Below are positions 942 to 17,291 of a DNA stretch of 64,000 bases, in pieces; the stretch's first letter is position 1; every line of letters starts with the position of its first letter. Position numbers and translations under genes: made by a program. The notes beneath the pieces were generated by a model. It made no database searches. It saw only the letters and a list, made by a program, of their open reading frames with translations, and was not told the DNA's origin. The stretch is taken from assembly GCF_015265475.1 (NCBI RefSeq), contig NZ_CP054493.1:1116001-1180000 (forward strand), read 5' to 3'. The DNA is from Candidatus Sulfurimonas marisnigri. Its GTDB lineage: Bacteria; Campylobacterota; Campylobacteria; Campylobacterales; Sulfurimonadaceae.

Positions 942-944
942 TTG

Positions 945-2132
945 ATGAAAATATTACATACATCTGATTGGCACTTAGGACAAAGCTTTATGGGGAAAAG
1001 TAGGGAAGAAGAACATCAGGCTTTTTTAACTTGGCTGCTAAAGACTATAGAAGAAGAGAATATAAATGTTCTAATTGTTGCCGGAGATATTTTTGATACA
1101 GGTACACCACCTAATTATGCACTAGAGCTTTACTACAATTTTCTTACAAAACTTTCTTTGTCTTCATGTGAAAATATTATTATTACCGCTGGCAATCATG
1201 ATTCTATCGCTACTTTAAAAGCTCCTAAGCAACTCTTAAAAGCACTTAACATTCATGTCATTACAAGTGGTGATGAAAATGAAAATGAAGTTGTTGAAGT
1301 TTACAAGAAAGGTAAACTGGAGGGAATTGTTTGTGCGGTTCCATTTTTACGTGATTATGTAGTCCGTCAATCAGTAAGTGCCCAAACTATGAATGATAAA
1401 GAGTCATCACTCACTCATGGGATTAAAGAACATTATAATAATGTTTATAAAGAAGCTTTAATAGTTGCGGATAAGAAAAATATACCTATTATCGCTACTG
1501 GACATTTAACAACAGTTGGCAGTAAAACAAGTGAATCAGAACGTGAAATATATATTGGTGGTACCTTAGATATAGATAGTGATTTTCTAAGTAAAAATTT
1601 TGACTATGTAGCCTTAGGACATCTTCATATTAACCAAAAAGTTGGATGTGAACATGTACGTTACTGTGGCTCTCCAATACCTCTTAGTTTTAGTGAGTCA
1701 ACATCACAGAAAAAAGTAAATATCGTAGAGTTTGAGAATAAAACTATAAAAGTTACTGAGTTAGATATACCACTTCATAGACCTTTGTTAGTTTTGCGTG
1801 GAGATGTTACATCTATTTTAAAAGACTTTGAGTCTGTCGAAGATAAGAATACATGGATAGAAGTCCATCTCAATGATGAAAATCCTTTCCATGCTAACCA
1901 AGTCATAAGAGACAAAGCAGAAGAATTAGAACTTATACTTTTAGCAGTTAAGATAGATAAAACAGAAAAAGCACTTCATAAAGAAGATTTTGATGTAATA
2001 AGTCTGGATGAACTCAACCCTTTCGAGGTATTTGAGCGTCGTATGGAAAAGGATGGACTAGAAGATGAAGATTTTGTAAAAGAACTTGTAGTTAACTTTA
2101 AACAGATTGTTAGTGAGGTTCAAAACTCATGA
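945..2132 (+). CDS. sbcD: Exonuclease SbcCD, subunit D (Mre11-like)
   Basis: Calcineurin-like nuclease subunit of SbcCD, which with SbcC opens and trims hairpins, protein-blocked ends and palindromes at replication forks. All phosphoesterase motifs are visible in order: DWHLG near the N-terminus, AGDIFD, TAGNHDS, ATGHLTT and ALGHLHI, the metal ligands of Mre11 nucleases. The length (395 aa) is normal for SbcD. I start at the ATG at 945 because the in-frame TTG at 942 only adds one Met before the conserved MKILHTSDWHLG. The stop overlaps the sbcC start as ATGA, so the two subunits are translationally coupled. Confidence 0.96.
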   Translation: MKILHTSDWHLGQSFMGKSREEEHQAFLTWLLKTIEEENINVLIVAGDIFDTGTPPNYALELYYNFLTKLSLSSCENIIITAGNHDSIATLKAPKQLLKALNIHVITSGDENENEVVEVYKKGKLEGIVCAVPFLRDYVVRQSVSAQTMNDKESSLTHGIKEHYNNVYKEALIVADKKNIPIIATGHLTTVGSKTSESEREIYIGGTLDIDSDFLSKNFDYVALGHLHINQKVGCEHVRYCGSPIPLSFSESTSQKKVNIVEFENKTIKVTELDIPLHRPLLVLRGDVTSILKDFESVEDKNTWIEVHLNDENPFHANQVIRDKAEELELILLAVKIDKTEKALHKEDFDVISLDELNPFEVFERRMEKDGLEDEDFVKELVVNFKQIVSEVQNS

Positions 2133-5100
2133 AAATAATTTCAATAAAATCTCTCAATATTAATTCTTTAAAAGGCATAACTGAGATTAACTTTGCAGAG
2201 CTCACAAAAGATAGTGCTCTTTTTTCGATAACAGGGCCAACAGGTTCTGGGAAAAGTACAATACTTGATATCATCTCTTGTGCTCTATATGGACGAACTG
2301 CAAGACTAAAAAATCCAAATGATTTGATGTCACGACACTCTGGTGAAGCTTACTGTGAAGTTGAGTTTGAAATCAGAGGTAAAACATATCGTTCATCATG
2401 GACACAAAAAAGAGCACGAAACAAATATGATGGTGCATTTCAAACAGCTAAAATGGAACTTATCGATTTAGAAGAAGACAAAATTTTACCTTTAAAATCT
2501 AGAGAAGTGCCTAAAAAGATAGAAGAGCTGTCAGGTTTAGATTTTGGTCGTTTTACTCAGTCTATGCTACTTGCTCAAGGTGGCTTTGATGCCTTTTTAA
2601 AAGCTGATGAAAAAGAGCGTTCGGCACTACTTGAAAAGATAACGGGAACGCAGATATATGCGGATATTTCTATTGCTATATTTGAAAAACATCGTGGCTT
2701 TCAGCAAGAGATGGATTCTGATCAAAAAATCTTGGAATCGATAGAACTTTTAGACAAGACAGTCGTTAAACAGAAGCAAAAACAACTTAGTGAAAATATT
2801 GCTAAAAAAAGAGAGACTGATGGAGAATTGAAAAAGCTTACGTTATCTCTAAACTGGCTACAAAGACTTTCTGAGCTTAGAAAGGATAGTAAAAGATATG
2901 AAGAGGAGTTCAAAGAGGTTGCAAAGCTAAAAGAGGAGAGTAGAAATTCCTTTCTTAAGTTGGCTCTAGCAAATCGAGCGCTTAACGTGTTTGCTACTTT
3001 TTCATCTTACACGCAACTTCAAAAGAGTGTATCTGTAGATAAAACAACAGCAATGAAACTTACTGGAGAACTTACTCTTCTAGATGAAGATATAAAGAAC
3101 AAAGATAAAGAGTACTCTGTTATAAAAAAAGAGTTTGAAAAGGATAGTGTCGAGTTTGAAGCACAGAATCAGAAGCTAAAAGAGGCTCGTGAAATACAAA
3201 CGCAAGAGAAAGAGGCAAAGATAAACCTTAGTAAAGAAGAGAAGTTACTAAAGGGTAAGCAAGAGAATTTAACGCAGATAACAAATTCTCTAAATTCAAT
3301 TGTTAAAGACCATAACGATATACAAAAAGAAGCGGATACTAAAAAATCTTATCTTCTTGCCAATGCTAAAGATGAGAAGCTATTATCTGTAATTGGGATG
3401 ATAGAGCAAAATATCAGAGAGTATAAAAAAGAGAAAGAAAGCCTTACTAACAACCAGGGTAAGTTGGAAGCCTCTGGAAGTACATTTCTTACTCAAGAGA
3501 CAAACTATAATCTGAAAAAAGAGGAAGTTGATAAACTATCTTCTATTTTTAAAGAGAAAGAATTTGTATATACACAACTAGAGCAAAATAGCCTGAATGA
3601 CTTTAAAATAGAAGAGGGCAGTAAAAAAAGTTTAGAAGATACACAAACTCTAATAAGAGCATTAGAAAGTTATACTAAGATTGCCAAAAACAGAGATAAA
3701 GAGCTTGAAGAACATCACAAATATAGTGATCTGGTAAATTCTCTTATGGAAACAAAAAGTGTTTCTCAGCAGTATATAAACGAAATAAAAAAGCATATAG
3801 ATACACTTCGAGAAAAACAAGAAAAAGAACAACTACTTAAAAAATATGAAGAAGATAGAAATAATCTTGTTGATGGTGAAGCCTGTTTACTGTGTGGTTC
3901 TACAGAACATCCATTTGTAAATAGTTTAAACGAAGTTCATATAGATAAAACTAAGCAGATGATAGCAAATCAAGTTAAAGAGTTAGAAGATAAAGAGAAG
4001 GCTCTTAAAGAGTTAGAGTTACGCTTTGGTATTGCACAAACAAAAAAAGAGACATCAATACTTGAAATTCAAAAGTTAGACAAAGAGATAAAGACTCTTA
4101 AGAATCTTTTTAAACAATACTCCTTTGAACCTACAAGTGATAGTGAAATAGAACTGGGGGAAAAAGAGGAAGTACTTACTAAAAAACTCGATATTGTAAA
4201 GCAAAACCGTATTCAAAAAGATGAACTACTAAAACAGAGAGATAGCGCGGGTAAACAACTTCAAGTCCAAGAGAAGTCATTGGAGCAGATAAAAAGTGTT
4301 TTAGAAAAACTAAGTAGTGAAAAAGAGCAGCTGATTTTAGCTGTAAAATCTAATGAAGTAAAAATCAAAGAGTATCTAAAAAGTTTAGAGTTAGATTTAG
4401 AAAAGTTTGACCTAAAACTAGACCTAGAAAAATTAGATATTCAGTATAAAGAGCTTGTAAGTAGAAAAGAGCTTTATATAGAAATGACAGAGGCTTTAAA
4501 AGTATTAGATATAGAGTTAAATAAATGCAGTGTAATTAAAAAAGAGAGTGAGACTAGAGCCACTTTATTAGCGAAAGAAATTGAACTAATAGAAGCGAAT
4601 ATAAAAGAGTTGGTGCTAAATCTTGCTAAGTTATCTTCTAAGCGAATAGAGATACTTAATGTAGCTGATTTGGATGTTCATGAAAAAGAGATTACTACCA
4701 AGTATAAAATGGCGCAAGAAAGAGAACAGCTATGTAAAACTGCTCTAAATGAACTTAAAGTAAAGAGTGCAGAGCGATTAGCTAATAAAAAAAGTCTAGA
4801 AATAGAAATAGCTGAAGATGAGAAAAAGCTAGATATATTAAGAGCTGAACTAGAAGAACTCTATAAGCAAAATGATTTTAAAGATGCAGAGGAACTGCAA
4901 AATGCAATGCTTGATAAAAATGAGAGAGAAGAATTGTCTACTTTGTGTAAGACAATAGAAGACAGATATAAACAAACGCAAACTCTTAAAGCAGAGACTA
5001 TAAAAAAATTACAAGAACATGAGAAAGAACCTCTCAGTGATAAACCAATAGAACAGCTAGAAGTTTTACAGGCTTTGCTAGGACAAAAAGCAGATGCACT

Positions 5101-5704
5101 TGCCGAGAGTATAGGAAGTGATAAAAAAGAGTTAGAACTTAATCAGGAAAACAGTGATAAACATAAAGAGAGAATAGCATCTCTAGAAAAGAAAAAAGAG
5201 TCTTTTAGAGTCTGGGTAAAACTAAATGAACTAGTAGGTTCAGCAGATGGAACAAAATTTAAAAAGTTTGCACAAGGTATAACACTAGATCAGCTTATAA
5301 ATCTAGCAAATCAGCACCTAAATATTTTAAGTTCTCGCTACACCTTAGCAAGAACTCAAGATAAACTCTTAGAGCTTGAGATTATAGACGCTTATCAAGG
5401 CAATGTTGTCCGTCCTGTAAGTACCTTATCTGGAGGGGAAAGTTTTATCGTAAGCCTTGCATTAGCACTTGGTCTATCAGAACTCGCGAGCCAAAAGATA
5501 GCCATAGACTCACTCTTTTTAGACGAGGGCTTTGGAACACTGGATGAAGATAGTTTAGAAACGGCTCTTAATGCTTTAAACCTTTTACAAAGTGGTGGAA
5601 AAATGGTTGGTGTTATCTCGCATGTGGAAGCTCTAAAAGAGCGTATACCTTTACAGATAAAGGTTGTTCCTAATGGGGATGGGACTAGTTTTGTTGAGAT
5701 TTAG
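2129..5704 (+). CDS. sbcC: Exonuclease SbcCD, subunit C (Rad50-like ATPase)
   Basis: SMC/Rad50-type ATPase partner of SbcD. The Walker A GPTGSGKST lies at residues 36-44. Two long Lys/Glu-rich coiled coils flank a zinc hook CLLC at residues 586-589. The C-terminal head carries the signature STLSGGESF, the Walker B DSLFLDEGFGTLD and a VISHVE switch. At 1191 aa it is in the usual range for SbcC. It overlaps sbcD by 4 bases. Only 16 bases separate it from the OLD-family gene, so transcription may continue into that gene. Nothing is missing and the pair should be functional. Confidence 0.96.
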   Translation: MKIISIKSLNINSLKGITEINFAELTKDSALFSITGPTGSGKSTILDIISCALYGRTARLKNPNDLMSRHSGEAYCEVEFEIRGKTYRSSWTQKRARNKYDGAFQTAKMELIDLEEDKILPLKSREVPKKIEELSGLDFGRFTQSMLLAQGGFDAFLKADEKERSALLEKITGTQIYADISIAIFEKHRGFQQEMDSDQKILESIELLDKTVVKQKQKQLSENIAKKRETDGELKKLTLSLNWLQRLSELRKDSKRYEEEFKEVAKLKEESRNSFLKLALANRALNVFATFSSYTQLQKSVSVDKTTAMKLTGELTLLDEDIKNKDKEYSVIKKEFEKDSVEFEAQNQKLKEAREIQTQEKEAKINLSKEEKLLKGKQENLTQITNSLNSIVKDHNDIQKEADTKKSYLLANAKDEKLLSVIGMIEQNIREYKKEKESLTNNQGKLEASGSTFLTQETNYNLKKEEVDKLSSIFKEKEFVYTQLEQNSLNDFKIEEGSKKSLEDTQTLIRALESYTKIAKNRDKELEEHHKYSDLVNSLMETKSVSQQYINEIKKHIDTLREKQEKEQLLKKYEEDRNNLVDGEACLLCGSTEHPFVNSLNEVHIDKTKQMIANQVKELEDKEKALKELELRFGIAQTKKETSILEIQKLDKEIKTLKNLFKQYSFEPTSDSEIELGEKEEVLTKKLDIVKQNRIQKDELLKQRDSAGKQLQVQEKSLEQIKSVLEKLSSEKEQLILAVKSNEVKIKEYLKSLELDLEKFDLKLDLEKLDIQYKELVSRKELYIEMTEALKVLDIELNKCSVIKKESETRATLLAKEIELIEANIKELVLNLAKLSSKRIEILNVADLDVHEKEITTKYKMAQEREQLCKTALNELKVKSAERLANKKSLEIEIAEDEKKLDILRAELEELYKQNDFKDAEELQNAMLDKNEREELSTLCKTIEDRYKQTQTLKAETIKKLQEHEKEPLSDKPIEQLEVLQALLGQKADALAESIGSDKKELELNQENSDKHKERIASLEKKKESFRVWVKLNELVGSADGTKFKKFAQGITLDQLINLANQHLNILSSRYTLARTQDKLLELEIIDAYQGNVVRPVSTLSGGESFIVSLALALGLSELASQKIAIDSLFLDEGFGTLDEDSLETALNALNLLQSGGKMVGVISHVEALKERIPLQIKVVPNGDGTSFVEI

Positions 5705-7737: not shown

Positions 7738-9222
7738 ATGAACCTCTCTAAATCCCTATATACAAAAGCCATCCAATGTCCAAAAGCACTATGGTTAAAA
7801 AAGTACAATAAAGAAGTACTTACACCACCAGATGCAACTGCATTAGCAAGATTTGAAACCGGTAATGTTGTTGGAGAGTTGGCGTGTAAACTTTTCCCAA
7901 ATGGAAAAGAAGTCATTTATAATCCTGATGATTTTAACGGTATGGTAGAGACTACTAAAGAGTGGATAGAGGAGGGCTTAGAGTATATTTATGAAGCTAC
8001 TTTTCTTTATAATGGAATCTTAGTTTTAGTAGATGTTTTAAAAGTGACTCCTGATGGATTAGAGATATATGAAGTAAAAAGTTCTAGTAGTGTTAAAGAT
8101 ATTTATTTGCATGATGTTTCGATACAGTTGTATGTACTTAAACAGCTTGGATACAGTGTAATCAGTAGTAATGTCGTACATATTGACAGTTCTTATGTTC
8201 GAGGTGATGAGCTTGATTTAAATGGACTATTTAAGATTGTAGATGTTAGTGATGAAGTAAATACTTTGCAAGTAGATATTCCTAAAAGACTTGAGGAGTT
8301 TGAATTATATCTAGCCGATAGAGATAATGAACCAGATATTGATATTGGGAGTCATTGTAATAAGCCTTACGAATGTGATGCAAAAGAGTACTGTTGGAGA
8401 GTTCAGAGAAATATACCTGAGTATTCATTATTCAATATTTTTAATCTTGGCAGTAAGAAGCAGATAGAACTTTATGAACAAGGCATAGTTAATATAGAAG
8501 ATATTCCTGACGGTTATGCCATGACCGCTATACAAAAGCAAAAAGTTCAAAACTGGAAAGAGCAAGTAACTTTTGTAGATGAAGAGAATATAAAAGATTT
8601 TCTTAACACACTGAACTATCCTATTTATCATCTTGATTTTGAGACATTTCAACAGGCTATTCCAGAGTGGAAAGGTATTAGCCCATACCAACAGATACCA
8701 TTTCAGTATTCGCTTCATATAGAGCACTCTGATGGGATTATAGAACATAAAGAGTTTTTAGGTGAAGATGGTATTGACCCTCGTTATGAATTGGCCAAGA
8801 GGCTTGTTGAAGATATTCCTATTGACGTTACAGTTTTAGCTTATAACATGAGTTTTGAAAAAGGGGTAAATGCTAAATTAGCTGAGAGTTTTCCAGAGTT
8901 TACAGATCATCTACTTTCTATTAATGAAAATACAAAAGATTTAATGTTCCCTTTTCAAAAGAAATACTATGTTACACCTGAAATGCAAGGAAGCTATTCT
9001 ATCAAGTATGTATTACCATCATTAGTGCCGGAAATGGCAGAAGCATATAAAAGTTTAAACGGTATTCAAAACGGTAGTGATGCAATGAATGCCTTTCCAA
9101 AACTTCCTAGTATGAGCCCAAAAGAAAAAGCAGACACTAGAACGGCTCTGCTTGAATACTGTAAGCTTGATACTTTAGCAATGGTGGAAGTTCTTAAAAA
9201 ACTAAAAAAAGTAATAGAATAA
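7738..9222 (+). CDS. RecB-like nuclease fused to DEDD-type exonuclease (DUF2779-like)
   Basis: Two nuclease-like halves in 494 residues. The N-terminal half begins LSKSLYTKAIQCPKALWL, as in DUF2779 proteins. It carries a PD-(D/E)xK core (Asp99, Glu112-Val-Lys114) and a QLYVL helix like the QxxxY motif of RecB/Cas4 nucleases. The early Cys and a later Cys cluster (SHCNKPYECDAKEYC) suggest a 4Fe-4S cluster as in Cas4/AddB. The C-terminal half looks like an RNase H-fold exonuclease: YHLDFETF (Asp300, Glu302), VLAYNMSFEKG and a final EYCKLDTLAM. I infer a two-headed DNA nuclease. A strong hairpin follows the stop, and the SMC operon starts 79 bases on in the same direction, so a partnership is possible but not shown. 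Confidence 0.8.
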   Translation: MNLSKSLYTKAIQCPKALWLKKYNKEVLTPPDATALARFETGNVVGELACKLFPNGKEVIYNPDDFNGMVETTKEWIEEGLEYIYEATFLYNGILVLVDVLKVTPDGLEIYEVKSSSSVKDIYLHDVSIQLYVLKQLGYSVISSNVVHIDSSYVRGDELDLNGLFKIVDVSDEVNTLQVDIPKRLEEFELYLADRDNEPDIDIGSHCNKPYECDAKEYCWRVQRNIPEYSLFNIFNLGSKKQIELYEQGIVNIEDIPDGYAMTAIQKQKVQNWKEQVTFVDEENIKDFLNTLNYPIYHLDFETFQQAIPEWKGISPYQQIPFQYSLHIEHSDGIIEHKEFLGEDGIDPRYELAKRLVEDIPIDVTVLAYNMSFEKGVNAKLAESFPEFTDHLLSINENTKDLMFPFQKKYYVTPEMQGSYSIKYVLPSLVPEMAEAYKSLNGIQNGSDAMNAFPKLPSMSPKEKADTRTALLEYCKLDTLAMVEVLKKLKKVIE

Positions 9223-9301: not shown

Positions 9302-11908
9302 ATGTTAACTAAGATAGTTTTACTAAATTGTGCAAAATATGAACAAGGGATTATTACGATAAATGATGTAGAGTCCATTCAAATTGTAGGTAGAAACAAT
9401 TTAGGAAAAACGACATTAATTAGTGTACTTAATTTCCTATATTTACCAAGTCAAAAAGATTGGAACTTTGATCATACCCCAAAAGAGACATTAAACTTTT
9501 ATTTTAAAAAGCTTGATAAAAATTATATACTTTTTGAAATATATAAAGATGGGTATTTTTGTATCTTGATGAAAAGAGGTTTAAACAATGACCTTGAATA
9601 CTATAAGATAGACTCATCCTATGATGAGATAAAAGATAAAATTATACAGAACTCTAAACTGTTAAAATTTGAGTCAATCCAAGAAAACTTACTGGGAAAT
9701 ATCTCTAAACTTGACAATAAAAAATACAAAACTCTTTTATATGGGCACTCTAAACGAGATAAGACGGTACTGTGGTTAAAAGAAAATAAACAAAACGTAT
9801 TTAGTAGGGTGTATAGGTATCTGTTAGATATAACCCAGATAGATAATTATGCAGTAAAAGAATCACTTTTAGTATCTGATAATAGAGAGAAAATAAAAAG
9901 AGAATTTACAAATATAGATAACGACAATATTCAAAGTATGCAAAAGCAACAAAGAGTGATAGAAAGATTAAAAAATATTAAAGAAGAGTTTACTTATTTT
10001 AAAAATATTGTCAGTGAATTTATCGTGAAAAGTTCTGTTCTTGTACAGAGCTACTCTGATTTTTTATCTCTATATCAAGCTGAAAAGAAAGAGTTAGAAG
10101 ATATTGTTTTATCATCCTCACGTATAATAGAACATATTGAAAAAGAAAAAATCCTGCCACTAAAAAACAATATAGAAAAGATTGGTATTGAGAAAGGAAC
10201 AATAGAATCAGACTTGAAACACCAAAGTATAAGTCTTGATAAAGAACTTAAAACTAAAGAGAAAATTTTAAAGTATGATGACATTGGTTTACTTAGAATA
10301 GCACAAGAAAATTTGAACAGTGAAATGGATAAAAAGAAGTATGATTTAGAGCAAATAAAACAAGAGAACTACACACTTGAGATGATTGATGGTTTAATAA
10401 ATAGTACAAAAATTAAACAAGTAAAGCTATCGAAACAAATAGAAAACTATGAGAATTTACTTATACATCATATATCAGAAGATGTAGATGCTAAACGAAT
10501 AATTAGTAGTGTTTTATCAAAAGATGTTCTTGAATTAGACAAGAGAAATATCATAGAGATTGTTAGAAGTATAAGTGATGGCTCTCTAAAACTTTTTGAT
10601 GGTGAGATTGATATATCGAGTATAAAAGCAGTTGATTTCATTACAATAGAAAGCTTAATGCAAGAGTTGAAACAAGTCGAGTTATCGATAGAAAAATATG
10701 CAAAAGTTAAAAATAATATTGAAAACTATAATGGCATCAAAGCAGAGATACAGAGACTAGAGAAAGAAATTTCTCTAATTGTAAATCAAATCAAAGAGAT
10801 AAGTACGCTTCCTGATATACTGAATAAAATCACTTCTCTCGAAGAAGATGGCAAAAGTTTAACTTTAAGACTATCAGAAATAACATCTAAAGCAGATGAA
10901 AACAAGCAAAATTTGGAAGCAGCAGAGTTATTGGTTCAAAATGAACAAGACAAAGAACAAATATCAAAAGAAAGATTAGCTGTATTAAATGCATATCACA
11001 TGAATTTTAAAGATGAGTTAGAAGAATTAGAAAACATAAACATAGAGAACAGCTCTGATAAAACAATTGATGAGTTGGCTGAAGAGATAAAAACTCTTAG
11101 AAAAGAACTAAATAAACTAAATGATGCTAAAAATAGCACCTTTCGTGATTTAAAACATATTTTACAAAAAGAGCATGCTATAGAGAATGATTTTATAAAA
11201 GAAGTGGAAGAGGAAATTGACACTATTAAAGATAAAGAAAATACTGTTTCGGAACTTATTCAAAATATTACTAATGAAATCAGTGCCCCAACTAAAACTT
11301 TTTTAAGAGAGTTGGAAGATTTTGAAAAGTACATTGTTTCTGCTAACACAGCATTTAAAAAATACAAAGTTTCAAATATTCAAACTATTGAGATTAAATT
11401 AGTTAAAAATGAAAATATAATTTATGATTTAAAACAGATTGCAGATATCAAGAAGGATGATCTCTTTGACTTTGATGAAAATAAAACTTCTAGTTATGAG
11501 GAACAAATTAATATTTTAAAAGGCTATATTAGTAAATCAAAAGTATTTACACTTTCGGACTTGTTTGATGTCGCGTTTGTCATAAATGGAAAAGTAGCTA
11601 ATTTAAACAAGCAGATAGAGTCAACAGGTACAGATAAAATTTTGAAGATAATGCTTTTTATCCTTATAATTAAAAATATAATCATTCAGGATGAAGATAA
11701 CAAGCTTGTAGTGTATGTGGATGAGCTTAGTGCAGTTGATGATGACAATAGTGCTGAATTAATTAGAATATGTAAAGAAAATAACTTAATACCTATTTTT
11801 GCCAGTCCCGATAAGAAAATAAATATTCAAAAGTATTATGACCTACAAGAGTTGAGTAACGGTCAGATAGTTGTGGATGAGAATAGGGCGATATTATGGG
11901 AAAAGTAG
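9302..11908 (+). CDS. Short SMC/MksB-like (JetC-like) ATPase
   Basis: An 868-residue SMC-type protein. Walker A GRNNLGKT is at residues 30-37. A long Glu/Lys/Leu coiled-coil region runs from about 210 to 740 with an interruption that could be a hinge. The C-terminal head has ESTGTDK (about 773-779) where a signature motif is expected and Walker B LVVYVDELSAVDDD (about 802-815). The Walker B and GTDK features resemble MukB/MksB/JetC more than SbcC or Rad50. JetC/MksB proteins are usually longer than 1000 aa, so the arms are short. It is the first gene of a four-gene operon with a Toprim protein and two small partners, and has an AAAGGGAG site. I infer a loop-extruding ATPase of a Wadjet-like system; exact type unknown. 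Confidence 0.72.
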   Translation: MLTKIVLLNCAKYEQGIITINDVESIQIVGRNNLGKTTLISVLNFLYLPSQKDWNFDHTPKETLNFYFKKLDKNYILFEIYKDGYFCILMKRGLNNDLEYYKIDSSYDEIKDKIIQNSKLLKFESIQENLLGNISKLDNKKYKTLLYGHSKRDKTVLWLKENKQNVFSRVYRYLLDITQIDNYAVKESLLVSDNREKIKREFTNIDNDNIQSMQKQQRVIERLKNIKEEFTYFKNIVSEFIVKSSVLVQSYSDFLSLYQAEKKELEDIVLSSSRIIEHIEKEKILPLKNNIEKIGIEKGTIESDLKHQSISLDKELKTKEKILKYDDIGLLRIAQENLNSEMDKKKYDLEQIKQENYTLEMIDGLINSTKIKQVKLSKQIENYENLLIHHISEDVDAKRIISSVLSKDVLELDKRNIIEIVRSISDGSLKLFDGEIDISSIKAVDFITIESLMQELKQVELSIEKYAKVKNNIENYNGIKAEIQRLEKEISLIVNQIKEISTLPDILNKITSLEEDGKSLTLRLSEITSKADENKQNLEAAELLVQNEQDKEQISKERLAVLNAYHMNFKDELEELENINIENSSDKTIDELAEEIKTLRKELNKLNDAKNSTFRDLKHILQKEHAIENDFIKEVEEEIDTIKDKENTVSELIQNITNEISAPTKTFLRELEDFEKYIVSANTAFKKYKVSNIQTIEIKLVKNENIIYDLKQIADIKKDDLFDFDENKTSSYEEQINILKGYISKSKVFTLSDLFDVAFVINGKVANLNKQIESTGTDKILKIMLFILIIKNIIIQDEDNKLVVYVDELSAVDDDNSAELIRICKENNLIPIFASPDKKINIQKYYDLQELSNGQIVVDENRAILWEK

Positions 11909-12696
11909 AATTTAATTTTTATAACAATTTACAATTAAATGGAAGAGCCGCCAATAAGATTCCAAAAGTTGTAGCATCTTCATCTGAATTCCATGTTTTA
12001 TTGGAAGCTAAAATTATTAATAAAGTTCATAGTGGACGAGGGTACTATTATGAAGTATCTAAGCAGGATAAATTTGATGCTTTTTATAATAAGAAATATC
12101 CAAGGGATAATATTGAAGTTATGACAGAAGTTGATAATCAGTTAAAGTACAGAGACACTAAAGCAACTGGATTAAAAAAAGATAGAGTTATATTCATACG
12201 AGGTACTCAAAAAATCACACTTAACGACAGGGAGTTGGATCTAAAGCATGCAACACAAGATTTTAATATATTTAGTGCAGTTTTTCAAACACTAAAAGCT
12301 AGCAAAATATGTTTTGTAGAAAATTTACAGCCTTTTTTAGAGGTTGAGAAGATCTTAGGCGATAAGTACACTTATATACATTTTTATGGTCGATTGCCTA
12401 GAAAAGAGGTGCTGTTAAATATAGAATGCGATGAATATTTACACTTTGGAGATTATGATTTTTTAGGTCTAAATGAATTTTTAAAAGCAAAAGAGGTGTT
12501 TGCTAAGTGTGAAATTTATATTCCAGATAATTACGACATGCTTTATAATGAGTTTTCTAGGAAAAGGGAAGCAAAAGATACAATTTATGAAAAAGTAAAG
12601 AACTCTACGATTAGTGAGGTGGTGAGAATAAGAGAGCAATTGAATAAACATAACCGTTTTTTAGAACAGCAAGTTGTTATAAGTGAAACAGTATGA
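11896..12696 (+). CDS. Compact JetD/MksG-like Toprim nuclease
   Basis: A 266-residue protein overlapping the SMC gene by 13 bases. The first ~100 residues look like winged-helix DNA-binding segments. The second half fits a topoisomerase VI A/JetD-type Toprim fold: KICFVENLQPFLEVEKI with Glu142, then YLHFGDYDFLGLNEFL with Asp186 and Asp188. A C-terminal IREQLNKHNRFLEQQ helix resembles the end of DUF2220/JetD proteins. In Wadjet systems JetD is the subunit that cuts the plasmid. This one is shorter than the roughly 380-residue JetD I know of, so the N-terminal arm domain is reduced. The next gene starts within its stop codon (ATGA). Confidence 0.7.
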   Translation: MGKVEFNFYNNLQLNGRAANKIPKVVASSSEFHVLLEAKIINKVHSGRGYYYEVSKQDKFDAFYNKKYPRDNIEVMTEVDNQLKYRDTKATGLKKDRVIFIRGTQKITLNDRELDLKHATQDFNIFSAVFQTLKASKICFVENLQPFLEVEKILGDKYTYIHFYGRLPRKEVLLNIECDEYLHFGDYDFLGLNEFLKAKEVFAKCEIYIPDNYDMLYNEFSRKREAKDTIYEKVKNSTISEVVRIREQLNKHNRFLEQQVVISETV

Positions 12697-13865
12697 ATGA
12701 ACCAGTACAAATTCTTGCTTTTGTTAGTAATTTTTTCAACGAAATAAAAGTAATTTATAAACTAGAAAAAGAGTATGGATCCATCACACATTCTCAGCTA
12801 AAAACTATATTTGATCGAGACTCGACAATAGATAAACTTTTTGAATATGACATTTTAGAAGAGATGGTTGATGAATCTATAAAGATAAAAGAGGTTTGGT
12901 ACACGTTAATTGAGAGTTTGTTAGATGAAACATCGCTTGATATGCCAGAGCAAATATCTAAGTATCATCTTTCATTAACTGAGTTGTACACAAAGTTAAA
13001 GAGCTCAAAAAGTAAAAATGAAGTTATAGAGTATACAAAATCGTTAGATAAAGAGATAAGTAAATTTGAGAGCCAACTCAAAAGAAATATTAAAAAACTA
13101 ATAGAAGAAACAAGATACATCAAAGTTAATAGTGATAAATTAAACTATAAACAAAAGATGAAAAAAGCTTCTGAATTATCTAGTTTATATCTTGAGCCAT
13201 TTAATATTATTATGCAAAACCATAGCGACTCACTTATGTCTATCATTGCAGATATAAGTGAAGAAGCGAATAAGCAGCGGTTTTTAAATACTGACATTAT
13301 TGTGCAAAGACTATATACAAAAGTTTATACAGCTTTTTGTAGAGTAGAGCGTGAAGTTCAGAATAATAATCGGCTGTTGATTAACGAGGTAGGACCGCTT
13401 TTAGAGAGGATAAAGTCTGAGAGTGTTCTATTGAGTGGTTTTAGTTTATTTCTTCGAAATAATAAAAAGTATGAAGTGCCCAAACTATTACAAAAAACAA
13501 ATAACAAAGTCTATTTTAAAGATGCTATTTGGGATGCTAAAGATATATGGGACGGGTATTACGAGATACAAGAAGATGTTGTCATGCAGAGTATTGAAAC
13601 CGTAAAGAAAGAATGGATGTACGATGAAACAAAATATCTTAAGAAGCTGGAGGAAGCACTACCGGTAAATAATTTTTATAATTGGATCTATACTGAGTTA
13701 ACACAAGAGTTAGAGATGGTTGACTCTAAGATGTTTCTTCAGCTATCTAAGTTAATACATAATAGAAAAATCGAAGCCACATATGCTGATAACGAGAGAG
13801 AAAAAATAAGATTAGAAGATAAAATAATGAATGTGCCAATAGTGGGCATAAAAAAGGTATTGTAA
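12693..13865 (+). CDS. Probable kleisin-like (JetA/MksF-like) subunit
   Basis: A 390-residue, mostly helical protein with no enzyme motif. The N-terminal ~90 residues look like a winged-helix pair, followed by Lys/Glu-rich helices (about 100-240) and a short basic C-terminal tail. Position and architecture fit the kleisin of an SMC complex (JetA/MksF/MukF), which bridges the ATPase heads. I see no diagnostic signature, so the call leans on context: it overlaps the Toprim gene by 4 bases and is coupled by TAATG to the next gene. It could instead be an unrelated accessory protein of the same complex. Confidence 0.55.
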   Translation: MNEPVQILAFVSNFFNEIKVIYKLEKEYGSITHSQLKTIFDRDSTIDKLFEYDILEEMVDESIKIKEVWYTLIESLLDETSLDMPEQISKYHLSLTELYTKLKSSKSKNEVIEYTKSLDKEISKFESQLKRNIKKLIEETRYIKVNSDKLNYKQKMKKASELSSLYLEPFNIIMQNHSDSLMSIIADISEEANKQRFLNTDIIVQRLYTKVYTAFCRVEREVQNNNRLLINEVGPLLERIKSESVLLSGFSLFLRNNKKYEVPKLLQKTNNKVYFKDAIWDAKDIWDGYYEIQEDVVMQSIETVKKEWMYDETKYLKKLEEALPVNNFYNWIYTELTQELEMVDSKMFLQLSKLIHNRKIEATYADNEREKIRLEDKIMNVPIVGIKKVL

Positions 13866-14371
13866 TGAATGTTAATAATAGTTTTGTTTACCCTGAGAAA
13901 CATTTTGAGATAGTTAAAAATTTGCTAAACGGTAAGTTCATTCTACATAATGAAGAGTTGTTTGAAGTTATAAGTGATAACTTAGAGTTTTACATTGATT
14001 TTTTCCAAAAATCCTATGATTATGAGTTAGTAAAAAACACAGAAATTATCTATGTTATTTCAAGTATCACGAGTGAAAAGTTTTCTAGAAATATTATGTT
14101 GGTTTTAGCAGTTATATCTTGGGAGTTTAATAGAGAAGGTAAAAATATATATACAGAATTAGACAATAAGCATACTATTAGAAGTATAGAAGAACTTATT
14201 AAAAAATCAAGTTTTAAAGATAGCTGTAGAGGGATTAACATAGATAAACTATTTAAAGATGCTGCATCTAGAAATTTAGTGTTGATTCTTGATAATGAGA
14301 AAAGTATCAAGTTTACGAATGCTATAAATATATTTTTAGAGGCAGCTAAAGAGATCGCAGAACTAGAATAG
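13865..14371 (+). CDS. Probable KITE-like (JetB/MksE-like) subunit
   Basis: A 168-residue helical protein whose ATG overlaps the previous stop by one base. Size, predicted winged-helix content (IRSIEELIKKSSFKD and SRNLVLILDNEKSIKFT look like helix and beta-wing stretches) and position next to the kleisin-like gene suggest the KITE subunit (JetB/MksE/MukE). That subunit dimerises on the kleisin. No family signature is conclusive. It is the last coupled gene of the operon; 136 bases follow before the next gene. Confidence 0.52.
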   Translation: MNVNNSFVYPEKHFEIVKNLLNGKFILHNEELFEVISDNLEFYIDFFQKSYDYELVKNTEIIYVISSITSEKFSRNIMLVLAVISWEFNREGKNIYTELDNKHTIRSIEELIKKSSFKDSCRGINIDKLFKDAASRNLVLILDNEKSIKFTNAINIFLEAAKEIAELE

Positions 14372-14507: not shown

Positions 14508-15161
14508 ATGGAAAACAATCGAACAAAGATGGATGATGCATTTGAAATGATAGAGAAAATGGAGGAAAAATTTGAAAGCATGAACGTGCATTCTTTGCTA
14601 GTTGTAGTTGGACAGACTTTACACGATACAATGGATTATAGTAGACTTTTTAATAGTTTCAACAGTTATATGCAATTTAAAAATCTTTATCTCGATTCTA
14701 AATCAAGCACTTTAGAAGAAGATTTAGACAATGAGGCTGAAACAGAGGATAAGATGATGAATGAAATATATAATCAAATGCTCTCTCATAGGCGAGAAAT
14801 AGAAAAAACTCAAATGATAAATGTACAACAAATTTTAAGATTACAGGATATGGCTAGACGAGCACTTGAGTTTGCAGTTGAAAAATCAAAAACAAAAGCT
14901 GAGTTGCTACAGTGTGCTAAATATATAGAGTTTGAAATTGATGATAAAGATTGGGCTAATGAAATAAGAAAAAAAGCATATGCTAAAAACTGGAGTCCAT
15001 CAAATAGTGAAAGTTCAGATACAAATAATCCAGTGAAACCTAGTAGCGATTTTGAAAGTTTTATAAACGAAAATGAACTTGACTTAATGAAACATTTTAG
15101 TACTAAACGACCTGCTGCATATGAAGAGTTTTTAAAAGAAGAAGCTGAAAAAGACAACTAA
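14508..15161 (+). CDS. Uncharacterised acidic helical protein between SMC operon and integrase
   Basis: A 217-residue protein I do not recognise. It is rich in Glu, Lys, Met and Ser. It has an N-terminal amphipathic helix (MIEKMEEKFESM), a mid-region of probable coiled coil (about 75-125), a Ser/Asn-rich linker (about 160-175) and a charged tail ending in LKEEAEKDN. There is no signal peptide or membrane segment. A GGAGATAAT site precedes the ATG. It follows the SMC operon by 136 bases in the same direction and ends 18 bases before the stop of the convergent integrase, so it is an island cargo gene. It might be an accessory or regulator of the SMC system, but nothing in its sequence proves that. 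Confidence 0.6.
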   Translation: MENNRTKMDDAFEMIEKMEEKFESMNVHSLLVVVGQTLHDTMDYSRLFNSFNSYMQFKNLYLDSKSSTLEEDLDNEAETEDKMMNEIYNQMLSHRREIEKTQMINVQQILRLQDMARRALEFAVEKSKTKAELLQCAKYIEFEIDDKDWANEIRKKAYAKNWSPSNSESSDTNNPVKPSSDFESFINENELDLMKHFSTKRPAAYEEFLKEEAEKDN

Positions 15162-15167
15162 AATATA

Positions 15168-15195
15168 GGAGATGAGAGCTTACTTCATCATCTCT
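15168..15195 (+). terminator. Possible terminator between convergent genes
   Basis: GGAGATGA (15168-15175) can pair with TCATCTCT (15188-15195) around a 12-base loop, followed by an AT-rich run. It lies just after the helical-protein stop and inside the 3' end of the convergent integrase gene. Modest stem, so tentative. Confidence 0.3.
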
Positions 15196-16466
15196 ATAAT
15201 TTTATATAGTTTTTCATCTGAAGCATTAGGGTATAGTTTTTTTAATGTTTCATATTCAGTCTCAATTATTTCAACATCTATAGCATCATTTGATGTGCCT
15301 ATAACAGCTGTAAAAGTGTTTTGAGCTTCTATTGCTTGTTCTGTATTGTCATTAAGATAGTTTGCTTGTGTAGTACTTAGCAGTTTATGAGAGAGCATTT
15401 TAGAAACAGCATAGATATCTGCACCATTTCGTAGTGCCACAACTGCAACCATTGAGCGAAGATCATGCATAACCATATTGCTAACACCAATGCTTTCCAT
15501 GGCAAGTCTCCAATGATAATGTACTGATATTGCTTTTAAATCAAAAATTTTACCAGTAGTGGTTTTTTGTATCTTTATAGCATTTAGAAGTAGGGGAGTT
15601 AAGGCATAAGTGACTTCTGTGTTAGTTTTGGTATTTTCTTTAGGCAGTCTAAAAGATCCATAAGGGTATTGCTCTGTCTTTTTATAGTTAATATGGGAAT
15701 GTTCCATCAGCATGGTTTCATTTACTCTTCTACCGCTGAGTAGAAATGTAAATACACCTCTAGCTATTGGATGCTTATACTCCAATAATGTTTTAGCAAT
15801 GAGCTTGGCTTGTTCATCATCACCACTAAATTTTTGTTTAGGCTCTATTTTTGGCAATATGATTTTTTTCCAATTTAGAGTTACATCATTTGTATCTAGC
15901 AATGGTTTTAGTACGGCTTTAACTATAGTGATTGTTTTAGGCTTTTTCCCTTTGTTAATCATCTCATTAATAAGGTTTTGAATGTCATCTTCAGTGATTT
16001 CGTCAATGATTTTATTATCAAGTTTTTTGATTGAAGCATTGTAGGAACCGTTATACATTTTAACAGTACTAGAACTAACCTCAATGGCTTTACGAGCTAT
16101 CCAAGCAGCATATACAGATTTGAACTTTCTATCTTTAGTATCTATCTTTGGAATAATCTTCTTTTCAATTTTCAAGGTACCTTTAGATTTAAGAGTATTT
16201 TTCATCTCTTCACGCTTACCAAGTAATGATCCAACAGCTTTAGCAATACTGGTACCTTTAGCAATTGTAAACGTTTCCTTGCCTCTAGCTCTTTTGTGAT
16301 TATGCATTGCTTCCACAGCTACTTCAATCTTGTAACTTCTATTTGGTGGTTTCGTTTCATTATCTTTAGTATATTTGATTTCATTGTCATTAACTAAAAT
16401 ATACATTCCAGAAGCTGTTCCATTATTTAGTTTGATTTTTACTGGCTTATGCTCTAAAACGCCCAT
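15180..16466 (-). CDS. Tyrosine recombinase/phage-type integrase
   Basis: Site-specific recombinase that would integrate or excise the island. Counting from the ATG at 16466 (428 aa) the catalytic set is visible: Arg247 in SGRRVNE, a Lys in LPKEN, HDLR with His334 and Arg337, LSHK with His360 and nucleophile Tyr370 in ANYLND. The middle (about 110-200) is a SAM-like core-binding domain. The first ~100 residues are basic and could bind arm sites. I prefer this ATG to the upstream GTG at 16475 because an AAAAGGTG site sits 8 bases before it. It is convergent with the island genes and marks the right edge of the mobile segment. Confidence 0.93.
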   Translation of the reverse strand: MGVLEHKPVKIKLNNGTASGMYILVNDNEIKYTKDNETKPPNRSYKIEVAVEAMHNHKRARGKETFTIAKGTSIAKAVGSLLGKREEMKNTLKSKGTLKIEKKIIPKIDTKDRKFKSVYAAWIARKAIEVSSSTVKMYNGSYNASIKKLDNKIIDEITEDDIQNLINEMINKGKKPKTITIVKAVLKPLLDTNDVTLNWKKIILPKIEPKQKFSGDDEQAKLIAKTLLEYKHPIARGVFTFLLSGRRVNETMLMEHSHINYKKTEQYPYGSFRLPKENTKTNTEVTYALTPLLLNAIKIQKTTTGKIFDLKAISVHYHWRLAMESIGVSNMVMHDLRSMVAVVALRNGADIYAVSKMLSHKLLSTTQANYLNDNTEQAIEAQNTFTAVIGTSNDAIDVEIIETEYETLKKLYPNASDEKLYKIIEMMK

Positions 16467-16484
16467 AAATAGCACCTTTTTTTT

Positions 16485-16634: not shown

Positions 16635-17291
16635 CTACAGGCAACTCTTTATAGTTTTTAAATCATTTAGTGCAATTTTTTTATCATCAGGATTTCTAAG
16701 TAAATGGTTCGGATGGTAAATTGGGATTAGCTTATACTCTTTGAAGTCAATAACATGTCCTCTTACACTTTGAAAATTTTCATTCTCAGATGTAACTTTA
16801 GCATAAGCATCTTTACCTAAGGTTACAATGATTTTTGGTTTAACAAACTCTATTTGTGAGAATAGATGGTCTTTACATGAATCCCACTCAGAATTTGATG
16901 GAGTGTTTGAGTTCAGAGGTTTACACTTTATCGCATGGGTAAAATAAACATCTTCAGTTTTTAATTTCAAAACATTTTCTATCATATTTGTTAATATTTC
17001 ACCTGAACGGCCGGTGTAATAAGAATTTGTACTATCTTCATTTAGTGAAACGCTATAGTCTATTATCATAATATCAGCATTTTGGTTTCCAAAACCACTC
17101 ATACTCTGTGATCTTGATTTACTTAAATCACATAGATGACATGTAGATATGTTTTTTGTTAATTCATTAAGGTTAGAAGGCTTTTCATTTGAACTTTTAT
17201 GGTTGACAGAAAATGGATCACTATATTCAAAGCCAAGAGCTTTTAGTCGATATAGATTTTGAAGAAGAAGTAGATTTTGAAAAGACTTCAA
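16635..17291 (-). CDS. Uracil-DNA glycosylase, family 4-like with Fe-S cysteines
   Basis: Removes uracil from DNA in base excision repair. Four cysteines are placed as in iron-sulfur UDGs: Cys51 and Cys54 (CHLC), Cys123 (IKCKP) and Cys139. The active-site loop YHPNHLLRNP (192-201) and the TGRSGEIL segment fit the UDG superfamily. The usual family 4 motif A, GEAPG, is replaced by DYSVSLNED, so the catalytic residue is shifted or changed. The start is a TTG with an AAAGG site; no ATG lies nearby. It is the first gene right of the recombinase and is divergent from the GGDEF-EAL gene. Confidence 0.85.
   Translation of the reverse strand: MKSFQNLLLLQNLYRLKALGFEYSDPFSVNHKSSNEKPSNLNELTKNISTCHLCDLSKSRSQSMSGFGNQNADIMIIDYSVSLNEDSTNSYYTGRSGEILTNMIENVLKLKTEDVYFTHAIKCKPLNSNTPSNSEWDSCKDHLFSQIEFVKPKIIVTLGKDAYAKVTSENENFQSVRGHVIDFKEYKLIPIYHPNHLLRNPDDKKIALNDLKTIKSCL

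What the first reader, a model, noticed from the sequence alone, without database searches (positions are those of the whole stretch)
9302..14371. Four-gene SMC operon in rearranged (C-D-A-B) order: possible new Wadjet/MksBEFG-type system
Seen: four coupled genes (13-base overlap, ATGA, TAATG) encoding a short SMC ATPase with Walker A and B, a Toprim protein with Glu142 and GDYD (Asp186, Asp188), a 390-residue helical protein and a 168-residue one. Known: Wadjet systems (JetA kleisin, JetB KITE, JetC SMC, JetD Toprim) cut plasmids, and the order I know is A-B-C-D. Inference: the same four parts here are in the order C-D-A-B, with short members, beside several nuclease genes in an integrase-bounded island. 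It may be a divergent Wadjet type or a new SMC defence family.
Basis: partly seen in the sequence, partly recalled or inferred. Interest (0 to 1): 0.82.

Follow-up and report, generated by a model that had tools for sequence, protein, structure and literature searches.

The report
Compact, reshuffled plasmid-defence SMC operon
A sulfur bacterium (Sulfurimonas) carries, on a mobile defence island, an unusually compact and re-ordered version of the Wadjet/Mks machinery with which bacteria are known to find and cut small circular DNA such as plasmids; the standard annotation libraries searched here do not recognise it as a system.

Summary
In detail: 9302-14371 holds four overlapping genes for an 868-aa SMC ATPase, a 266-aa Toprim protein, a 390-aa kleisin and a 168-aa KITE protein, in the order C-D-A-B. 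KITE matches Pfam MksE far above its cut-off; the kleisin model's top Foldseek hits are MukF and JetA; the Toprim protein keeps the metal ligands and conserved Lys/Glu of JetD/MksG; and every subunit has its best profile match in the same role of a group of plasmid-borne four-gene systems (Neptuniibacter, Halioglobus, Polaromonas, Pseudomonas, Salinibacter), all A-B-C-D. SMC trees join the two groups (97/94) apart from type I Wadjet. No PADLOC or NCBIfam model recognises the set. C-D-A-B recurs in one other genome only; Campylobacterota also carry D-A-B-C versions, so the order is one of several cyclic permutations. Particular here: a Toprim about 115 residues shorter than type I JetD, and loss of the second of two proposed catalytic glutamates (Q259). 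The operon sits in a 28.1-kb integrase island at the 3' end of a uracil-DNA-glycosylase gene (18-bp att repeat; site empty in 24 of 29 relatives). Verdict: a divergent compact MksBEFG/Wadjet variant; plasmid cutting is inferred, not shown.

The parts
9302..11908 (+). JetC/MksB-like short SMC ATPase, 868 aa
   Evidence: Walker A/B and signature-like motif; head-domain tree and profile match to plasmid-group SMC heads (scores 148 and 114)
11896..12696 (+). JetD/MksG-like compact Toprim nuclease, 266 aa
   Evidence: Pfam JetD_C 19.7 bits, E 6e-4, just under the cut-off of 22; invariant DTK lysine, E142, N143, D186, D188, E257; Q259 where all other 21 proteins have E
12693..13865 (+). JetA/MksF/MukF-like kleisin, 390 aa, N-terminal winged helix
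   Evidence: AF2 model (N-terminal block pLDDT about 80-87); Foldseek PDB hits 1-6 and 8 MukF/MukBEF chains, hit 7 JetA of 8q72; profile match to plasmid-group kleisin over 361 columns
13865..14371 (+). JetB/MksE-like KITE protein, 168 aa
   Evidence: Pfam PF21980 MksE, E 1.1e-14, 55.6 bits, above cut-off
15180..16475 (-). tyrosine integrase of the island
   Evidence: Pfam Phage_integrase 31.7 bits; 78-88% identical integrases sit next to the same UDG gene in two other Sulfurimonas genomes
16642..16659 (.). right att copy (CAACTCTTTATAGTTTTT) inside the 3' end of the UDG gene; left copy at genome 1104530-1104547, about 11.5 kb before the window start
   Evidence: 18-bp exact repeat; single copy at the UDG/409-aa gene junction in empty-site relatives
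16635..17291 (-). uracil-DNA glycosylase gene, the integration target (host chromosome)
   Evidence: Pfam UDG; synteny
7738..9222 (+). DUF2779 protein, neighbour, not counted as part of the system (also upstream of the system in G348, beyond mcrBC)
   Evidence: L007:16408-17886; 59-65% identical

Best explanation
A complete, compact MksBEFG/Wadjet-like system. By analogy with studied Wadjet and Mks complexes, the SMC ATPase (C), closed by the kleisin (A) and the two-winged-helix KITE (B) subunits, binds DNA and extrudes loops with ATP. When it has reeled in a small circle and stalls on itself, the bound Toprim dimer (D) makes a metal-dependent double-strand cut and linearises the circle, so small plasmids and other small circular DNA are lost. 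Shown here: the four components, their co-inheritance with a four-gene group on plasmids, preserved ATPase motifs and metal ligands, and carriage on a mobile defence island. Inferred: loop extrusion, circle sensing, cleavage and plasmid restriction. Particular to this variant and inferred to matter: a shorter SMC and a Toprim lacking the N-terminal arm, so docking of D on the complex must differ from type I; and one proposed catalytic glutamate replaced by Gln, so cutting rests on E142/D186/D188/E257.
For: KITE: Pfam MksE above cut-off. Kleisin: MukF/JetA fold hits. JetD: JetD_C E 6e-4; profile alignment to type I JetD, E 4.5e-4, aligning the VEN, GDYD and LEQ blocks; residues equal to MksG E236 and D279 (both needed for nuclease activity, PMC10123090) and E. 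coli JetD E248. Role matrix: each subunit's best match is the same role in the plasmid group. SMC tree 97/94; Toprim tree keeps the same groups. Conserved overlapping operon in G348. Island with RM, SoFic, OLD-like and SbcCD-like genes. No other MksE match in the genome.
Against: No experiment. JetD_C falls just short of Pfam's cut-off. PADLOC and NCBIfam recognise none of the four as Wadjet. The E351-equivalent is Q. The AF2 models came from 2-3 sequences; the Toprim model (pLDDT 46) is unusable. G266 keeps C-A-B without D, though its SMC gene is split over two contigs.
Confidence: 0.75

Rival explanations
1. A condensin-like MksBEF complex for chromosome or island maintenance, with D a regulatory or topology-modulating Toprim rather than a plasmid-cutting nuclease.
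For: MksBEF without a linked Toprim is common in Campylobacterota; G266 has C-A-B without D; one proposed catalytic Glu is Gln.
Against: Rare (3 genomes seen in the surveys of 397 and 228 genomes) and on a mobile island, unlike housekeeping condensins; D is translationally coupled and keeps all metal ligands in both complete copies; the sister plasmid systems all carry D.
Confidence: 0.13
2. The operon acts mainly against phage or conjugative elements by an abortive, Lamassu-like route.
For: Weak coil-region match of the SMC to LmuB (E 0.0026); defence-island context.
Against: No LmuA/LmuC; the kleisin and KITE are Muk/Mks types; the LmuB match covers only coiled coil.
Confidence: 0.05
3. SbcC/RecN-like repair ATPase with unrelated neighbours.
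For: An SbcCD-like pair lies in the same island (942-5704).
Against: The SMC has no SbcC_Walker_B match while the neighbour has; three partners are Mks-type; heads group with MksB-like SMCs.
Confidence: 0.02
4. A decaying, non-functional Wadjet copy with a crippled Toprim.
For: Q259; the relative G266 lacks D and its SMC gene is broken across contigs.
Against: All four frames intact with overlaps kept; Q at this place is shared with G348, a different family, at 47% identity, so it is an old, kept state.
Confidence: 0.05

Closest known systems
MksBEFG (Corynebacterium glutamicum; Wadjet type I; PMC10123090)
   Same: Same four subunit kinds; KITE matches the Mks family; Toprim metal ligands E236 and D279 conserved as E142 and D186.
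   Different: SMC 868 aa against 1111; Toprim 266 aa, lacking about 115 N-terminal residues compared with the type I proteins examined here; E351 is Q259; order C-D-A-B instead of mksFEBG (A-B-C-D); SMC in a different branch from the Campylobacterota type I JetCs.
Wadjet JetABCD type I (E. coli GF4-3, 8q72; P. aeruginosa PA14)
   Same: Kleisin fold hit to JetA of 8q72; E142 aligns with JetD E248 through the Campylobacterota type I JetD.
   Different: No PADLOC type I-III model recognises it; the type I system of a Sulfurimonas (G343, L072) is called at E=0 by the same library.
Plasmid-borne short-SMC four-gene sets (Neptuniibacter pLMG25378, Halioglobus pRR3-57, Polaromonas pPNAP02, Pseudomonas pBASL58 and pMPPla107, Salinibacter pSR76), listed as hypothetical proteins or unannotated
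   Same: Best match for every subunit; short SMC (926-966 aa) and short Toprim (291-336 aa); sister group in the SMC tree.
   Different: Order A-B-C-D; only about 15-25% identical; second Glu of LEQE kept.
MukBEF condensin (E. coli)
   Same: Kleisin fold; SMC-kleisin-KITE composition.
   Different: No nuclease; SMC 1486 aa; different branch.

Membership tests
Wadjet/MksBEFG in the broad sense | SMC ATPase with Walker A, signature and Walker B | tested here: met
Wadjet/MksBEFG in the broad sense | kleisin subunit (JetA/MksF/MukF fold) | tested here: met
   Foldseek top 8 all Muk/Jet, best E 8e-4, but from a model of low overall confidence
Wadjet/MksBEFG in the broad sense | KITE subunit (JetB/MksE) | tested here: met
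   PF21980 55.6 bits, cut-off 27
Wadjet/MksBEFG in the broad sense | Toprim nuclease with catalytic Glu and DxD | tested here: met
   E142, D186, D188, E257; the Pfam JetD_C score itself is under the cut-off
Wadjet/MksBEFG in the broad sense | ATP-dependent cutting of small circular DNA | not testable with these tools
   needs experiment
Wadjet type I | JetD with the long N-terminal (DUF3322-type) region | tested here: not met
   141 residues before the catalytic Glu against 254-264 in four type I JetDs
Wadjet type I | SMC falls in the type I JetC branch | tested here: not met
   separate starred branches
Wadjet types I-III as modelled in PADLOC 2.0.0 | JetA-D profile matches | tested here: not met
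   only JetC3 at 12.7 bits, coil region
Wadjet types I-III | gene order A-B-C-D | tested here: not met
   C-D-A-B
Lamassu | LmuB with LmuA effector | tested here: not met
SbcCD | SbcC Walker-B domain and SbcD partner | tested here: not met
   (met by the neighbouring pair 942-5704 instead)

The most novel reading that the evidence does not exclude
Together with the plasmid-borne sets and the Campylobacterota MksBEF+short-Toprim loci, this defines an unrecognised class of Wadjet-like systems built on a compact, armless Toprim nuclease. The Sulfurimonas/Sulfurospirillum branch is its most reduced form, with a permuted operon and a Toprim chemistry that works with only one of the two proposed catalytic glutamates, and possibly a different DNA-size or topology preference because of its shorter SMC.
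Probability: 0.4. Interest if true: 0.66.

Novelty: new variant of a known kind. Interest (0 to 1): 0.52.

Why it matters
Structural work on Wadjet has been mostly on type I complexes (PMC10586767). A compact natural variant with a short SMC, an armless Toprim and a natural Glu-to-Gln change makes two open questions testable: how SMC arm length relates to the size of circle that is cut, and which residues JetD/MksG needs for cleavage. It also shows that PADLOC and NCBIfam models miss a branch of these systems, and that plasmids themselves carry the sister group, so plasmid-on-plasmid competition is a likely setting.

Tried and rejected
Single-protein and 2-3-row alignment scans of viral contigs gave nothing; the patterns chosen were narrow, so this is weak evidence of absence. 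The one genome-contig scan returned only the two relatives already known, but named them. PDB sequence searches with the window alignments gave coiled-coil noise or nothing. The AF2 model of the Toprim (pLDDT 46) and its fold search are meaningless. hhalign of the kleisin against single MukF found nothing; role identity rests on fold and on the role matrix. Phage records: no match with a plasmid-group SMC. SbcC-like and Lamassu readings were considered and dropped (see rivals). The idea that the DUF2779 gene belongs to the system was dropped: G348 has a second copy away from it. The 217-aa gene 14508-15161 has no counterpart next to the system in G348, so it is not counted as a part. A home-made coiled-coil estimate was not discriminating and is not used. 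Promoter-like sites in the operon are no more frequent than in shuffles.

Full report
What is there. The window lies at 1,116,001-1,180,000 of a 2.49-Mb single-contig genome; the nearest named relative with the system, G266, is a Sulfurimonas MAG (OB5) placed in the same genus, and the other, G348, is Sulfurospirillum sp. BB15.

Identity of the parts. KITE: Pfam MksE PF21980 at 55.6 bits, cut-off 27; in G348 59 bits. Kleisin: no sequence-family match, but an AlphaFold2 model from three homologues has a confident N-terminal winged-helix-like block, and the first eight Foldseek hits in the PDB are six MukF-type chains, JetA of the E. coli JetABCD structure 8q72, and MukBEF-MatP; the overall superposition is poor because the C-terminal half of the model is of low confidence. 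Toprim: JetD_C at E 6e-4, slightly under Pfam's cut-off. In an alignment of 23 JetD-like proteins the invariant residues are a Lys in a (D/N)(T/S)K-like motif, E142-N143, D186, D188 and E257. Through a Campylobacterota type I JetD aligned to solved MksG (8b7f) and JetD(E248A) (8q72), E142 corresponds to MksG E236 and JetD E248, D186 to MksG D279, and E257 to MksG E349. E236A and D279A drastically impair MksG nuclease activity, and E349/E351 are the proposed alternative nucleophiles (PMC10123090). The second one, E351, is Gln in the window protein and in G348, the only two of the 23. The Toprim protein has 141 residues before the catalytic Glu against 254-264 in type I proteins, so the N-terminal region is about 115 residues shorter; the other short JetDs share this (87-176 residues).

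Relatives. The system was found in 3 genomes among the 397 Campylobacterota and the 228 same-family genomes searched (the two sets overlap). G348 has all four genes in the order C-D-A-B with overlaps. G266 has C-A-B with no D in place or elsewhere in the genome; its SMC gene is split over the ends of two contigs, whose ends I read as a transposon insertion (inference). Searches of plasmid records found six four-gene sets on large plasmids, all A-B-C-D, with SMCs of 926-966 aa and Toprims of 291-336 aa, annotated as hypothetical proteins or not at all. Profile comparison by role gives, for every window subunit, the plasmid group's same-role subunit as best match (scores A 80, B 37, D 114, SMC head N 148, head C 114; mismatched roles at most about 25). 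The SMC-head tree joins the window type and plasmid group at 97/94 and places them apart from Campylobacterota MksB (about 1190 aa), from a third group (L054-58 with a Persicobacter plasmid), and from type I JetC with MukB. The Toprim tree recovers the same groups, with all short Toprims separated from type I at 100/100; how the short groups relate to one another is unresolved.

Gene order. A Pfam MksE survey found 27 of 397 Campylobacterota genomes with such a system. Their neighbourhoods show MksBEF alone, A-B-C-D (L054-L058, L071) and D-A-B-C (L068, L070, L078, L079), besides type I Wadjet loci. So C-D-A-B is one of three cyclic permutations of the same set seen here. It has probably one origin, seen in two genera, and is not in itself a defining trait.

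Recognition. PADLOC 2.0.0 and NCBIfam 20 do not recognise the four genes, while the same PADLOC library calls a Sulfurimonas type I Wadjet with E=0. PADLOC also gives only weak partial matches to the plasmid group and to the other short-Toprim loci. DefenseFinder and subscription literature could not be consulted; no paper found describes a C-D-A-B or short-Toprim type.

Setting. An exact 18-bp repeat, CAACTCTTTATAGTTTTT, occurs at 16642-16659 in the 3' end of a uracil-DNA-glycosylase gene next to the integrase, and at genome 1,104,530 (positions). In 24 of 29 other Sulfurimonas loci examined, the glycosylase gene is directly followed by the homologue of the gene that lies beyond the left repeat here; in nearly all of them one copy of the repeat (0-3 mismatches) lies at that junction. 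Two others carry the same integrase there. The island is therefore about 28.1 kb. Its cargo includes SoFic and Fic proteins, a WYL regulator, a type IIG restriction enzyme-methyltransferase, a helicase, a T5orf172 (GIY-YIG-type) protein, an SbcCD-like pair, an OLD-like nuclease, a DUF2779 protein and this operon. In G508 an island at the same site keeps the left Fic gene and the integrase but has different cargo.

Mechanism. Shown: components, intact motifs, operon coupling, co-inheritance and mobile defence context. From established knowledge of JetABCD and MksBEFG (PMC10586767, PMC10123090): ATP-driven loop extrusion senses small circles and the Toprim dimer cuts. Inferred: the same here. 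The short Toprim must be held by the complex in a way different from type I, and its catalysis must work with a Gln at the second proposed Glu.

Limits. The survey outside Campylobacterota was confined to plasmids, phages and narrow pattern scans; the number of relatives is small and the structural models are shallow. No function was tested.

Noticed in passing
genome 1104530-1132659 (window -11470 to 16659): 28.1-kb integrative defence island at the 3' end of a uracil-DNA-glycosylase gene with 18-bp att repeats; the site is empty in 24 of 29 Sulfurimonas relatives, and the same integrase sits there in G508 and G513.
   Followed up: yes
L068, L070, L078, L079, L071, L054-L058: Campylobacterota MksBEF loci with a short (206-296 aa) Toprim gene in D-A-B-C or A-B-C-D order, only weakly matched by PADLOC: a wider unrecognised class.
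   Followed up: partly
L118-L119 (G508): Island with the same left Fic gene and same integrase but different cargo: a family of islands with exchangeable contents.
   Followed up: partly
window 7738-9222; L007:16408-17886; L121:3360-4904: DUF2779 proteins 59-65% identical between genera, near defence genes in two loci; no held paper links DUF2779 to defence.
   Followed up: partly
L016:6236-7078 and L007:18431-19363: WYL-domain regulator beside the plasmid set of Neptuniibacter and, by sequence resemblance, upstream of the G348 locus; the window island also carries one (L083:12828-13757).
   Followed up: no
window 942-5704: SbcD-like and SbcC-like pair (396 and 1191 aa) in the same island with weak LmuB and Mad3 matches.
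   Followed up: no
L008/L009 (G266): Related operon without the Toprim gene and with the SMC gene broken across contigs, in a genome that also has a type I Wadjet-like locus (L064).
   Followed up: partly
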